Assembly (NCBI GenBank): GCA_938042195.1
Contig: CALIRQ010000005.1
Coordinates: forward strand, 1 to 64,000
DNA from: an uncultured archaeon
GTDB taxonomy: Archaea > Thermoproteota > Bathyarchaeia > 40CM-2-53-6 > CALIRQ01
Direction of reading: 5' to 3'
Length of the DNA stretch: 64,000 bases
The notes under the pieces: generated by a model
What the model was told of the DNA's origin: nothing
The model's input: only the letters and a program-made list of their open reading frames with translations
Databases searched by the model: none
Shown here: positions 20,223-31,874 of the stretch, piece after piece
Layout of the letters: every line of letters starts with the position of its first letter
Numbering within the stretch: position 1 is the first letter of the stretch
Made by a program: the position numbers and the translations under genes

Positions 20223-20314
20223 GCGGCCGTAGTCCAGCCTGGCCTAAGACGCTGGCCTCCCATCGCCAAGGGGGCGAGCCAGTAACCCGGGTTCGAATCC
20301 CGGCGGCCGCACCA
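20223..20314 (+). tRNA. tRNA-Gly(CCC) with a 14-nt intron
   Basis: The acceptor GCGGCCG pairs with CGGCCGC, followed by discriminator A and an encoded CCA (20312-20314). The T arm is CCGGG-TTCGAAT-CCCGG. The anticodon stem CTGGC/GCCAG encloses CTCCCA, then an intron at 20263-20276, then A. Splicing between positions 37 and 38 gives a seven-base loop CTCCCAA with anticodon CCC. The intron fits a compact bulge-helix-bulge: CTCC pairs with GGGG, with bulges CA^T and CG^A. CCC decodes the GGG codons that are frequent here. Confidence 0.93.
20263..20276 (+). other. Intron of tRNA-Gly
   Basis: Fourteen bases sit between tRNA positions 37 and 38, the canonical archaeal site. Both cuts fall after the second base of a three-base bulge across a four-base helix. 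Confidence 0.85.
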
Positions 20315-26636: not shown

Positions 26637-27355
26637 TTTCCCATATGGGGCCGGATGGAATACCAAGGATATTGCTCGGCACCTCGCCCTTCATCGGCGC
26701 CGGACAATTCGGGCGCAGGGCCCCCTCCTATTACGCCAAGTTCTACCTGAACCCGGGGAAAATATTGGGCATCATAAGGAGGGTCTATGGATTGGGGATA
26801 AACGGGATCCAGCTCCTGCCCTACCGCCCCATCGTCGAAGCGGTGGAACAGGCCCTCGGGGAAGGGATGGAGCTCAGGATCGTCGGGAGCGTTAGGCTCC
26901 GAGAGGCGGAGGAGGACATAAGCCTATTGGAGCGGCTCGGGGCCGTTGCCATGATCGCCCATGCGGAGGTCGCCGACCTAGGGGATCCCGAAACCCTCGA
27001 GACGATCCTCGATGCGATCCGCGGAACCGGGAGGCCGGCCGGACTCGCATCCCATAAGCCCTTCAGGACCCTAAGCCGGCTCGAGGGGATCGGGCTGCGC
27101 TACGAGATCCTAATGGTCCCGATGAACCCCGCCGGGGCCTTCATGGATTGTAGGCCCGAGGAGCTCGCGGCGTTGCTCAAGCGCCTCGGGAAGTTCGTCA
27201 TCGCGAAGAAGGTTTTGGCCGCGGGATCTCTTCCGCCGGCAAAGGCCCTGCCCTACGTGGCGGGCTTGGACTGCGTCAACAGCGTCGCCCTGGGGGTCTC
27301 CTCGGAGCGGGAGGTCGAAGAGACGATGGCCCTAGCCAAGCGCTTATTTGCTTGA
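26633..27355 (+). CDS. Uncharacterised barrel-like protein
   Basis: This 240-residue protein opens with GIPRILLGTSPFIGAGQFG and has alternating strands and helices (NGIQLLPYRPIVEAVEQAL, VAMIAHAEVADLG, YEILMVPMNPAGAF, FVIAKKVLAAGSLPP, DCVNSVALGVSS) in the rhythm of a TIM barrel, loosely like aldo/keto reductases. I know it only as an unnamed conserved archaeal type. No cofactor or metal site is certain. It starts on the ATGA of the sirtuin stop and closes the four-gene operon. Its 3' end overlaps the convergent FGGY kinase tail by 12 nt. Confidence 0.65.
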   Translation: MISHMGPDGIPRILLGTSPFIGAGQFGRRAPSYYAKFYLNPGKILGIIRRVYGLGINGIQLLPYRPIVEAVEQALGEGMELRIVGSVRLREAEEDISLLERLGAVAMIAHAEVADLGDPETLETILDAIRGTGRPAGLASHKPFRTLSRLEGIGLRYEILMVPMNPAGAFMDCRPEELAALLKRLGKFVIAKKVLAAGSLPPAKALPYVAGLDCVNSVALGVSSEREVEETMALAKRLFA

Positions 27356-28861
27356 TCGCCGGGACCGCGAGGGCCCAGCCCCGGACAGCTTCCACATCTC
27401 CTCCTTCGTTAGCTCGTATAGGTTCCTATAGGATCGATATAGCCTCAGGTATTCGGCATGGGCGCTCCTCGAAGGCCTCGTGACCTCCCCAGCCCTAACC
27501 CATCCCTTGATGGCCCTCCAGCTCCCAATCGCTCCGCATCCGATCCCGGCGAGGAAGGCATCCCCAAGGGGGGCCCCGGGGTTCCCGGGGTCATAGCGCT
27601 GGGTTATGCCCGTCGCGTCCGTAACTATCTTGCGCCAGAGCCGGCTCTTCGCTCCCCCATCGACCGCCACCCAACCCTTGATCCTAACGCCCAGCTCCGC
27701 ATAGATCTCCAAGTGGTGCAGGAGGCCGTAGCCGAACGCTTCCAAGATGGCCCTGTAAACGTGCGCATCGGTATGGTAGAGGTTCAGGCCGAATATAATC
27801 CCCCTGGCCCTCGGATCCATTATCGGGGACCTCTCCCCCATGAAGTAAGGCAATACGATTATGCCCTCGGAGCCGGGCGGGATCCTCCCGGCCCGCTCCT
27901 CCAGCTCCTCGAGGCCCCTTCCCCCTTCGCCCCTCAGCCTCCTGAACCATTCCACTATAGCGCCGACCGTTTGCATCGCTATGGCCGATACCCACTTCCC
28001 GGGCCTGACGTGATGGCCGAAGTATAGGCCCTTGTGGATTATCGGCTTAGAAACGCATGTATGGGCCGCGCCGACCGATCCATAGGAGAGCATCGACTCC
28101 CCATCCTCTATAACCCCCGCGCTCAGGGCGGATACGTTAGCGTCGCAGGACCCGGCCACGACTGGAGTCCCCTTCGCTATGCCGATCTCCCTCGCCGCCG
28201 GCCCGGCTACTTCGCCGACCACGGAGCCCGCCTCCACGAGCTCTGGCAACATGGCCGGGTCGATCCCAACGGCCTCGCAGAGCTCGTCGCTCCATTCCCC
28301 CTTGTGGACATCCGAGAGCCCCGTCATGTCGGCGACATAGTAGTCAGAGGCGAAGGAGCCGGTCAGCTTTTTCACGACGTAGCAATGGGATGATGGGACT
28401 ATTCTCTTCGTCTTCTCGAAGAGCTTGGGCTCGTGGCGCTGGAACCAGAGGATCTTGGGCGCTAGCATCCTATGGCTTATCGGGTTCCCGTTTATCTTCA
28501 GGAATCTTTCGTCCCCGAGCTCGGCCTTGAGGCGGTCTATCTCGGCCGCGGCCCTCGTATCCATATAGAGGATCGATTTGCGGAGTGGCCTGCCCCTCCC
28601 ATCCAAGGGAGTCAGGTTCGTCGATAGCCCGCTGATGCCCACGCAGGCAATGTCTCTCGCCCCCGCCCTCCTCAGACAGGCCCTGACGGCCTCTTTGAAG
28701 GCGGCCCACCAATGCCTCTCGGGGTCCTGCTCCGCCCATCCGGGCTTGGGGAAGTAGACCTCGTTACGCACCCTCGAGCTGGATAGGATCCTCCCCATCG
28801 GATCCACTAGGACGGCCTTGCAAGCCGAAGTTCCTATGTCCACGCCCAGTAGGCTAGGCAA
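27344..28861 (-). CDS. FGGY-family carbohydrate kinase
   Basis: This 505-residue sugar kinase is of the xylulokinase/ribulokinase/gluconokinase fold. The N-terminal LGVDIGTSACKAVLVD phosphate loop, GWAEQDPERHWWAAF, ILYMDTRAAAEIDRL, the central SCDANVSALSAGVIEDGE and the late VAVDGGAKSRLWRKIVTDATG are all typical. The sugar cannot be read from sequence. It lies 18 nt downstream of the RuBisCO-superfamily gene on the same strand, so the kinase probably makes, or follows, a phosphorylated substrate of that protein. Confidence 0.9.
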   Translation of the reverse strand: MPSLLGVDIGTSACKAVLVDPMGRILSSSRVRNEVYFPKPGWAEQDPERHWWAAFKEAVRACLRRAGARDIACVGISGLSTNLTPLDGRGRPLRKSILYMDTRAAAEIDRLKAELGDERFLKINGNPISHRMLAPKILWFQRHEPKLFEKTKRIVPSSHCYVVKKLTGSFASDYYVADMTGLSDVHKGEWSDELCEAVGIDPAMLPELVEAGSVVGEVAGPAAREIGIAKGTPVVAGSCDANVSALSAGVIEDGESMLSYGSVGAAHTCVSKPIIHKGLYFGHHVRPGKWVSAIAMQTVGAIVEWFRRLRGEGGRGLEELEERAGRIPPGSEGIIVLPYFMGERSPIMDPRARGIIFGLNLYHTDAHVYRAILEAFGYGLLHHLEIYAELGVRIKGWVAVDGGAKSRLWRKIVTDATGITQRYDPGNPGAPLGDAFLAGIGCGAIGSWRAIKGWVRAGEVTRPSRSAHAEYLRLYRSYRNLYELTKEEMWKLSGAGPSRSRRSSK

Positions 28862-28879
28862 TGGGATCGGGGCCCGCCA

Positions 28880-30193
28880 TTATTTAGGCTTGAAGACCGC
28901 CTCCTTGGGCCGCTCGTAGACCCCCCACTTCTCTATGGCCGCCCTCAGCTCCTCGTGATCCCTCGCGTATTCCTCCAGCCTTATGCCCTTTGCAGCCGCA
29001 ACCGAGGCCTGTAGCATGGCCATCACGCCGGCCTTGGTCCCCATAGGATGGCCAAGGATCCCGCCGCCGGCGATCATCATGAAGTCGATGCCCAAGTCGT
29101 TGACGTGCTGCATCGCCAGGCCCGGGTACACGGCCCCTCCAAGGGCCGGCATCGCGGCCTTGATCCCATGGAGCGGATCCCTCAAGGCGCGGACGGACCA
29201 GAAGTACTCGCTGATGGGCTGGTACATCTTCCCATAGGGGGTCGAAAGGACCGTGAGGTCCGCCCCGCAGATCCTGACGAGCTTCTTGATGACCGAATAG
29301 TTCATACCAAGCCTTTCGGGCCTCATGAAGGCCCTGGCCATCGCCGGGTGGGCCAGTATCGGGACCTTTATGCTCGGGTCCTCGGCTATCGCCCTGAGGA
29401 TGGAATAGCCCGCCGTAACATAGTTTATGAGGAGGCAGTTGGCGCCCGCTTGAACGGCCTATTCGGCGATCTCGGGCATCTTATCGACCTCGTCCGTTAT
29501 ATTCAAGGCGTAGAGGCACTTCTTGCCGCTCTCCCGGCAACCCCTATCGATCGCCTCCATCGCGGCCGAGAGCCTCTCCTCCCTCCTGCAATACGACGGG
29601 TTGGATTGCATCTCATCGTCCTTTATCAGATCCGCCCCTCCCGCGGCCGCCTCGTAGCAGACCTTGGCTACCTCCTTCGGGGACATCCCGAGCTTGGGCT
29701 TCATTATCGCCCCGACCAGGGGCCTATCGCCCACGCGCAGGAGATCCCTCAAGCCCCCTATCCCGAACTTCGGCCCCTTGAACTCCCTCAAGAAGGACTT
29801 GGGCATGAATAGGTCGACGAGCTTAACGGAAGCAAGGCCCATGGAGTATATATTGCCCGCTATGCCCGTCATGACCATCGTTATCGGCATCCCATCGCCG
29901 AAGTTCGCCAAGGGGTGGGCGACCAAGGCGAGGAACTTCCTCGAATCGCCATCGGCCGGGAACTCGTAAACCCCCAGGACCTTCCCCTGGCTCCTCTCTC
30001 TGATCTCCTCCGTTTCGGTCGGGACCCTCAGCCAAGTCCCGGTCGTGGCCTCGGCAGCCAGCGCCTCGGCCACCTTCGATGGCTCCCTTTCCCCCGAGGC
30101 CTCTATCCTATAGGCCGCTATCAGGAACTCCTCCTGGTCGATCCCTTCGAAGATGGAGAAGGCATAGGGATCGTAGGTATACTCTCTTTCCAA
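28880..30193 (-). CDS. RuBisCO-superfamily protein, interrupted by an in-frame amber codon
   Basis: The full frame has 437 codons, the normal RuBisCO large-chain length. Visible are TTGTWLRV, TGIAGNIYSM, KPKLG and GADLIKDDE, which carries the carbamylated lysine and metal ligands, and GGGILGHPMG. At the site of the usual H-R pair it reads LAHPAMARAF. The loop with the conserved histidine reads TVLSTPYGKM, and the SGG segment reads ALGGAVYPG. These changes point to a RuBisCO-like protein rather than an archaeal CO2-fixing form III enzyme. TAG at 29459-29461 interrupts the frame at residue 245 with no gap in the alignment. A TATA box precedes the start. It is paired with the FGGY kinase. Confidence 0.85.
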
Positions 30194-30325
30194 CCGGGAT
30201 CCCCTTCAATCCTGATCACGCCAAGGGATATAAAAAAGGAGATCATCCCTCCCGCCCATCGTCCGCATCCATCTGGGCCCTTCGCTATTCTCCCCGCAGT
30301 TGGGGCAGAAGGCCGAGCCCTCCGG

Positions 30326-31874
30326 TTACCCGGCGCCGCGGTTAGGACATTTGGCCGTAGCGGCGTTTGGAGCCGTGGGATGGGGCGCCGCCTCCGATTC
30401 GGGCCTCGGGCCCCCCTTCAGGGCAAGGGCAGCGACGGCGATCCCGAGGGCGATGAGGGCCATTGCCATAAGGCTCGTCGATCCGCCGGGGATCTCCCCA
30501 GAATTGCTTGGTCGGCGGGGGTTGGGCCTCGAAGACCGAGAAGGATGCGGGCGCGCTCTCTGCTGCCTTATGGCCCGAGTCGCCGGACCAGGCGGCCCTA
30601 ACGGTCCAAGCGCCAACGGCATCGGGATTGAAGGAGTCGGAGAAGGCCCCCGATGCGGATGCGGCGACCTCCCTCGCCAGCTCGGATCCATCGGGCCTTC
30701 TATATACAAGCTTGATGCCCGCTGCCAAGGGGGGCGAGAGGGCGCCGGAGACCGATAGGGATTCGCCGATCTTGAGCGAGGTTGGGCTGACCGATATCGA
30801 AATCGAGCTCTCCCCCGTGGGCCTCCCCGCCGCCTCGATCAAGAGGCTTATCGATGCCGATCGGGTCAGTCCGCCGCCCTCGCCCATTATGGTCAGCGGA
30901 TAGGTGCCGGGGGCGACTGAGGCATCGGTCGAGATGGTTAGCAGGGATGCGAATGTCGGCATCCCCGATGCCGGATCGAAAGCGCACGATGCCCCATCTG
31001 GGAGGCCCATAAGGCCCAAGGAGACGGGCTGAGCCATCCCCGAGACGAGGCTTATGGCCACCTTGAACTCCGCCGCCCCGCCCGCCCTCACGGACCCTGA
31101 GGCGGGCTCGGCCGAGATGGAGAAGTCGAACTCCGGGGGCGGCGGGGGCGGTGGCTGGCCCGGCGCCAGGACGACCACGTAGGCGTTCGCGGCTTTATTG
31201 GCGGGGCCGGGGAACGATGCGCCGGCCGAGTTGGCCCAGACCTGGAGCGCATAGGTCCCCGGGGCGACCGAGGGGCCGACGCTGACGGTCATCGTGGAGG
31301 AGAAGGGCGCGGGCCTATCTGTGGCGGAGAAGGAGGCCGAAAGCCCGAGACGGGCGGGGATTGGATCAGGCGGATGGGCGTCCCGCCCGATGAGCCCGTT
31401 ATGGAGACGGTGAACGCGGCGGTTCCTGGTGGGCTGCTGACGGCCCTCGAAGCCGGGCTAACGGAGAGGGTCCACGCCTCCTGGGCCGTTGCCACGACCA
31501 TCGTGACGTACTTGGCCTTGCTTTGCGAGCCCGCGTTGGCCTGCACGGTTAGATCCTGTCTCAAACCCTGTGGCGCGGAGAGTGGGACCGATACAAACAT
31601 CCTTGAGCCGAACGGCGCCGGCCTATCGTTGACTTGGAAGCCGATGGACCATCCGGCTGGCGGGATGCACATGAGGCGAATGCGTGGGTTGTTGGGTATC
31701 GTGCCGGTGACGACGATATCAAAATATGTGCTCCCGCCGGGGGCGACGGTCCTCGATGAGGGCGTAACGGATAGGTCCCAAGCGTAGGCTTCGGGGATCA
31801 TGACCCCTATCGATGCTAGGGGCCATTAACGCCAAGAGGAGGGCGCGGAGGGATCGCGCCCTTGAGGGGTCCAA
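30326..31874 (-). pseudogene. Surface protein with Ig-like repeats, broken by three frameshifts
   Basis: Read across three frame changes this is one secreted, anchored protein. TTG at 31874 starts a signal peptide (RSLRALLLALMAPSI); a shift near 31800 leads to WDLSVTPSSRTVAPGGSTYF and a second repeat (WTLSVSPASRAV). A shift near 31335 continues with TMTVSVGPSVAPGTYALQV, a PPPPPP linker, and FDFSISAEPASGSV and ISISVSPTSLKIG domains. A third shift near 30500 leads to a C-terminal membrane helix (SLMAMALIALGIAVAALAL). The repeats resemble archaeal Ig-like stalk domains. The breaks may be real decay or sequence errors. Confidence 0.7.

What the first reader, a model, noticed from the sequence alone, without database searches (positions are those of the whole stretch)
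27344..30193. RuBisCO-like protein paired with an FGGY sugar kinase in one operon
Seen: the large-chain homologue keeps the KPKLG and KDDE metal-site segments but has changed residues where the usual His-Arg pair, loop histidine and SGG serine are expected. It is followed 18 nt later by an FGGY kinase. Known: form III enzymes of archaea work with AMP phosphorylase and ribose-1,5-bisphosphate isomerase, neither present here; form IV proteins act in methionine salvage or sugar-acid breakdown. Inference: an unassigned sugar or sugar-acid route in which the kinase supplies a phosphorylated ketose to a RuBisCO-like enolase, isomerase or decarboxylase.
Basis: partly seen in the sequence, partly recalled or inferred. 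Interest (0 to 1): 0.66.

Follow-up and report, generated by a model that had tools for sequence, protein, structure and literature searches.

The report
Archaeal RuBisCO-like protein with sugar kinase
Some archaea carry a RuBisCO relative that has lost residues thought to grip one of RuBisCO's two phosphates and sits next to a sugar kinase, which points to an undescribed sugar-breakdown step; in this particular genome the gene is interrupted by a single stop codon.

Summary
The window holds a form IV-type RuBisCO-like protein (RLP, 28880-30193, minus) followed after 18 nt by an FGGY sugar kinase (27344-28861). It missed an in-frame TAG at codon 245; the 97%-identical gene of the nearest genome has TGG there. 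Low nonsynonymous change says the stop is recent or a consensus error. The genome also has a complete AMP phosphorylase / ribose-1,5-bisphosphate isomerase / form III RuBisCO cluster elsewhere.

The pairing is real: orthologues of both genes (66% and 57%) lie side by side in another family of Bathyarchaeia, and a second archaeal RLP clade pairs with a different FGGY subfamily plus a class II aldolase. One same-genus genome has the RLP but no kinase. Trees put the RLP outside form III (AU p=0.003), nearer the methionine-salvage enolase, but it fails every curated cut-off. Loss of the C5-phosphate residues with the C1-phosphate site kept suggests an enolase/isomerase acting on a ketose monophosphate made by the kinase. 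Substrate unknown; chemistry inferred. New variant of a known kind.

The parts
28880..30193 (-). RuBisCO-like protein gene (437 codons plus stop; TTG start), interrupted by one in-frame TAG
   Evidence: best NCBIfam rubisco_III 293.8 bits against a cut-off of 497; orthologues G001 97%, G002 77%, G242 66-67%
29459..29461 (-). in-frame TAG (codon 245); TGG (Trp) in G001
   Evidence: no pyrrolysyl-tRNA synthetase above cut-off in the genome; TAG is an ordinary terminator in 2 of 13 window genes checked
28862..28879 (.). 18-nt intergenic gap between RLP stop and kinase start
   Evidence: sequence
27344..28861 (-). FGGY carbohydrate kinase, 505 aa, intact, XylB-like but below the XylB cut-off
   Evidence: XylB 353.8 bits, cut-off 380.25; 91% to G001, 57% to G242
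30229..30237 (-). TATA-like stretch (TTTTTTATA) about 36 nt upstream of the RLP start; possible archaeal promoter element
   Evidence: read from the sequence only; not tested statistically

Best explanation
The RLP and the FGGY kinase form a two-gene unit of sugar catabolism in Bathyarchaeia. The kinase phosphorylates a free ketose; the RLP, using a Mg2+/carbamylated-lysine site and Lys175/Lys177/Lys334, binds that monophosphorylated ketose through the phosphate site that RuBisCO uses for the C1 phosphate, removes a proton next to the carbonyl to form an enediolate, and returns a proton elsewhere (isomerase or enolase). In related loci the product would then be split by a fuculose/ribulose-1-phosphate-type class II aldolase and the aldehyde handled by aldehyde oxidoreductases. 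Shown: the gene pair, its conservation, the residue pattern, the tree position. Inferred: the reaction, the phosphate position and the aldol step. Unknown: the sugar. In this genome the RLP copy has acquired a TAG very recently, or the base is a consensus error.
For: Pair conserved across families: G242 RLP 66% and kinase 57% side by side, 36 nt apart (L075), and that kinase is the only FGGY match in the 1.4 Mb genome. A second RLP clade (G186, G168, G555, G514) also has an adjacent FGGY kinase, from a different FGGY subfamily, plus a class II aldolase; one FGGY match per genome in G186 and G168. Both RLP clades keep K175, K201, D203, E204, H294, K334, T65, W66 but have lost R295 and H327, the residues that by established RuBisCO structure work grip the C5 phosphate (own knowledge). 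G242 and G555 RLPs score best against 2,3-diketo-5-methylthiopentyl-1-phosphate enolase, a mono-phosphate enolase, though below its cut-off. Strong constraint: 14 nonsynonymous against 79 synonymous codon differences between G000 and G001, lower than for the neighbouring genes tested and the form III RuBisCO.
Against: G002 keeps the RLP (with further changes N123E, G404A) but no FGGY kinase was found anywhere in it, so the partnership is not obligatory. G457 has the second-type RLP without an adjacent kinase. No aldolase or dehydrogenase adjoins the pair in G000/G001. The window copy has a stop. FGGY kinases can act at C1 or C5 and the sequence does not say which. The structure model was too poor to use (mean pLDDT 49.5).
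Confidence: 0.45

Rival explanations
1. It is a methionine-salvage RLP: a 2,3-diketo-5-methylthiopentyl-1-phosphate enolase or a 5-methylthioribulose-1-phosphate isomerase, and the kinase is only a neighbour.
For: Tree places it on the MtnW/photo side (97/94); G242 RLP scores 310.6 bits to that enolase family; an MtnA homologue exists in all genomes searched; RLPs with these activities are known (PMC4958253).
Against: Below the enolase cut-off of 409 bits. The MtnW references have Lys where this protein has Asn123 and have lost Lys334, which is kept here. mtnA does not adjoin the RLP. MTA phosphorylase plus MtnA already give a ketose 1-phosphate, so the conserved kinase would be unneeded; the classic pathway also needs an O2-dependent dioxygenase (established knowledge).
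Confidence: 0.15
2. It is a decarboxylase or transcarboxylase of phosphorylated sugar acids, as OiaX is for 3-oxo-isoapionate-4-phosphate.
For: OiaX-type RLPs also sit beside a sugar-acid kinase; Lys334 and Asn123, which serve carboxyl chemistry in RuBisCO, are kept.
Against: Only 231.8 bits against the OiaX cut-off of 700. The four OiaX-like plasmid proteins and 3nwr keep Arg295 and nearly all keep His327. Separate well-supported clade. Their kinases are of another family (four-carbon acid sugar kinase).
Confidence: 0.15
3. It is a divergent but genuine RuBisCO that carboxylates ribulose-1,5-bisphosphate.
For: Metal site and Lys175, Lys177, Lys334, His294, Asn123 kept; rubisco_III is the best NCBIfam family for the window copy (293.8 bits).
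Against: R295P, H327V, S379G; cut-off is 497 bits; AU test rejects grouping with form III/I (p=0.003); the genome already has an intact form III enzyme in its AMP cluster.
Confidence: 0.05
4. In this genome the RLP is a dead gene and only the kinase is functional. (This bears on the local copy and is compatible with the main explanation for the family.)
For: In-frame TAG with no sign of pyrrolysine machinery; the only clear internal stop among 54 G001 frames with a window match, so the assembly is not generally poor; G002 shows the unit can be reduced.
Against: 14 nonsynonymous to 79 synonymous differences, no clear excess on the window branch (7 against 3 polarised), no indel. A metagenome consensus error at one base cannot be excluded.
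Confidence: 0.3

Closest known systems
Form III RuBisCO of archaea (AMP pathway)
   Same: Fold family, metal site KDDE, KPKLG, Lys334; about 38-39% identity to the genome's own form III enzyme
   Different: Lost Arg295, His327, Ser379; not linked to AMP phosphorylase or ribose-1,5-bisphosphate isomerase; outside form III in the trees
2,3-diketo-5-methylthiopentyl-1-phosphate enolase MtnW/YkrW (form IV)
   Same: AHPA motif in place of HRA, PxxYG-type loop, His327 lost; nearest side of the tree; single-phosphate substrate proposed here
   Different: Keeps Asn123 (Lys in MtnW), Lys177 and Lys334; scores below the MtnW cut-offs; paired with an FGGY kinase
OiaX and related RLPs paired with four-carbon acid sugar kinases
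   Same: RLP plus sugar kinase side by side
   Different: Another RLP clade (Arg295 kept) and a different kinase family
FGGY xylulokinase XylB
   Same: Both FGGY domains, best NCBIfam match (353.8 bits)
   Different: Below the 380.25-bit cut-off; substrate and position of phosphorylation unknown

Membership tests
Form III RuBisCO | All RuBisCO catalytic and substrate-binding residues present | tested here: not met
   R295P, H327V, S379G, G381A
Form III RuBisCO | Phylogenetic position within form III | tested here: not met
   AU p=0.003 against a clade with form III/I rows; 97/94 split in the reduced tree
Form III RuBisCO | NCBIfam TIGR03326 cut-off 497.45 bits | tested here: not met
   293.8 bits
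Form IV (RuBisCO-like protein), broad sense | RuBisCO homologue lacking residues essential for RuBP carboxylation | tested here: met
   Pfam both domains; three or more essential positions changed
MtnW/YkrW enolase | NCBIfam cut-offs (409 and 513.6 bits) | tested here: not met
   288.6 and 232.2 bits for the window copy; 310.6 and 256.6 for G242
MtnW/YkrW enolase | Lysine at the Asn123 position, Lys334 absent (pattern of references 2oek, 4nas) | tested here: not met
   Asn123 and Lys334 kept
OiaX decarboxylase | NCBIfam NF042437 cut-off 700 bits and clade membership | tested here: not met
   231.8 bits; separate clade
Form IV subclades IV-AMC and IV-GOS | Clade membership | not testable with these tools
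   no reference sequences of these clades could be fetched
FGGY carbohydrate kinase | FGGY_N and FGGY_C above gathering score | tested here: met
   194.1 and 79.9 bits
Xylulokinase XylB | NCBIfam TIGR01312 cut-off 380.25 bits | tested here: not met
   353.8 bits
Any of the above enzymes | Measured catalytic activity | not testable with these tools
   needs purified protein

The most novel reading that the evidence does not exclude
Thermoproteota carry at least two deep form IV lineages that twice joined with different FGGY kinase subfamilies to run an undescribed ketose-monophosphate pathway, in which an RLP that keeps Lys334, Asn123 and His294 performs enediolate chemistry (possibly even carboxyl chemistry) on a sugar with one phosphate; these lineages branch near the origin of the bacterial methionine-salvage enolases.
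Probability: 0.35. Interest if true: 0.72.

Novelty: new variant of a known kind. Interest (0 to 1): 0.5.

Why it matters
RLPs of known function are few (methionine-salvage enolase, methylthioribulose-1-phosphate isomerase, sugar-acid decarboxylases). A conserved archaeal RLP that has shed the C5-phosphate residues, kept most of the catalytic lysines and travels with a sugar kinase gives a concrete substrate class to test, and would fill a gap between archaeal form III RuBisCO and the bacterial form IV enzymes.

Tried and rejected
Pyrrolysine reading of the TAG: rejected (no PylS above cut-off; TAG used as terminator; Trp in the orthologue). Poor assembly as the general cause of the stop: 54 G001 frames with a window match gave only this one clear internal stop; the rest lie near frame ends or on frames that look spurious. 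Nucleotide-salvage role: the AMP cluster has its own intact RuBisCO. Structure modelling: a three-sequence alignment gave mean pLDDT 49.5, so no fold search was run. Literature: no paper in the held library joined RuBisCO-like with FGGY, or RubisCO, Bathyarchaeia and form IV; the library is partial. The bacterial-type promoter scan was uninformative. The Ig-like proteins upstream (30342-31801) showed no match in the G001 or G002 stretches and were set aside. One G001 paralogue row was out of frame and the first form of the tree; it was corrected for and later.

Full report
OBSERVATION. The minus strand of the window carries a RuBisCO large-chain homologue at 28880-30193 and, 18 nt downstream, an FGGY kinase at 27344-28861. 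The 97%-identical orthologue in the closest genome, G001, has TGG there. Between the two genomes 82 of 102 base differences fall in third codon positions and there is no indel; counted by codon, 79 differences are synonymous and 14 nonsynonymous, tighter than for TldD, TldE, the mechanosensitive channel, the kinase or the form III RuBisCO. The stop is therefore very recent or a single wrong base. Pyrrolysine is unlikely: no pyrrolysyl-tRNA synthetase passes its cut-off in the genome and TAG ends two of 13 window genes.

RESIDUES. Aligned with form I, form III and form IV references (list of active-site positions as in PMC9570433), the window protein keeps Glu60, Thr65, Trp66, Asn123, Lys175, Lys177, Lys201, Asp203, Glu204, His294, Lys334, Gly403 and Gly404. 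It has Pro for Arg295, Val for His327, Gly for Ser379, Ala for Gly381. From established RuBisCO structural work (own knowledge, not tested here) Arg295, His327 and Ser379 hold the C5-phosphate end, while Thr65, Trp66, Lys334, Gly403 and Gly404 hold the C1 phosphate. The pattern fits a substrate with one phosphate. The orthologue in G242 still has SGG at 379-381, and G002 has further changes (N123E, G404A).

PLACE IN THE FAMILY. The genome has a second, intact homologue in a standard cluster with AMP phosphorylase and ribose-1,5-bisphosphate isomerase, so the AMP pathway is present, apart from this gene. In a 50-row tree the window protein, G001, G002 and G242 form one clade (100/100), outside the form III/I/OiaX group; leaving out long or partial rows gives the same split at 97/94; an AU test rejects grouping with form III/I (p=0.003). 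A second archaeal clade (G123, G168, G186, G555, G457, G514) lies beside MtnW (86/87); joining it with the window clade is not rejected (p=0.23). No curated NCBIfam cut-off is reached. Form II, IV-AMC and IV-GOS sequences could not be fetched, so identity with a named subclade is not excluded. The host class is taken to be Bathyarchaeia because the 20,424-base contig of same-genus genome G002 matches a named Bathyarchaeota MAG contig of the same length and match identity.

THE PAIR. In G001 and in G242, which is in a different family, the RLP is directly followed by the orthologous kinase; in G242 this is the only FGGY match in the genome. G002 has the RLP and no FGGY kinase was found in it. 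In the second RLP clade, G186 and G168 have an FGGY kinase directly upstream and G555 and G514 directly downstream, each with a class II aldolase nearby; those scored (G186, G555) match L-ribulose-5-phosphate 4-epimerase, L-fuculose-phosphate aldolase or ribulose-1-phosphate aldolase best, all below cut-offs. The kinase tree splits into two separate FGGY groups that match the two RLP clades. So the RLP/kinase link either arose twice or survived a kinase replacement; in either case chance neighbourhood is a poor explanation. Around these loci lie tungsten-type aldehyde oxidoreductases, lactaldehyde-type dehydrogenases, an iron alcohol dehydrogenase and transporters, consistent with sugar breakdown.

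HOW IT MOST LIKELY WORKS. The kinase supplies a ketose monophosphate; the RLP forms an enediolate and reprotonates it, as isomerase or enolase; in the better-furnished loci an aldolase then splits the product into a triose phosphate and an aldehyde. The pair, its conservation, the residues and the tree are shown; the reaction, the phosphate position and the downstream steps are inferred. Methionine-salvage and sugar-acid decarboxylase roles remain as rivals. A structure model was attempted and discarded (mean pLDDT 49.5).

VERDICT. It is a new variant of a known kind; interest 0.5.

Noticed in passing
G000 contig 6, 82297-83290 minus (L133); also L130 (G001) and L131 (G002): mtnA (methylthioribose-1-phosphate isomerase) is interrupted in all three genomes of the genus by a 22-23 nt insert that folds with its flanks into a bulge-helix-bulge motif; cutting after the second base of each bulge restores the frame (THCN-AGALATAG) in all three. 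The loop differs in sequence and length. It looks like a tiny spliced archaeal pre-mRNA intron; the known protein-gene case found in the library is cbf5 (PMC2738675).. The comparison with G242 mtnA failed (empty reference).
   Followed up: partly
G000 contig 7 (L118 5117-10203) and G001 contig 8 (L119 4158-9220): An aldehyde ferredoxin oxidoreductase 57-58% identical to the one beside the G242 RLP is followed by another FGGY kinase and a PRK02399-type protein.
   Followed up: partly
L036 3834-5111 and L037 9812-11233: G001 and G002 have a third RuBisCO paralogue (K177N, S379A, G380A) that was not found in G000.
   Followed up: partly
L038 (G008): A further RuBisCO-like variant (E60S, K177C, R295K, K334G) lies among two FGGY kinases, a class II aldolase, 2-oxoacid dehydrogenase E1/E2, ADP-dependent kinase, fructose-bisphosphate aldolase and sugar ABC genes.
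   Followed up: partly
L048 5676-8879: A Spirochaetota RLP (31% to the window protein) directly follows a transketolase encoded as two genes.
   Followed up: no
window 20223-20314 plus: ARAGORN reports a single tRNA of undetermined type with a four-base anticodon (ccca); possibly an intron-bearing or odd tRNA.
   Followed up: no
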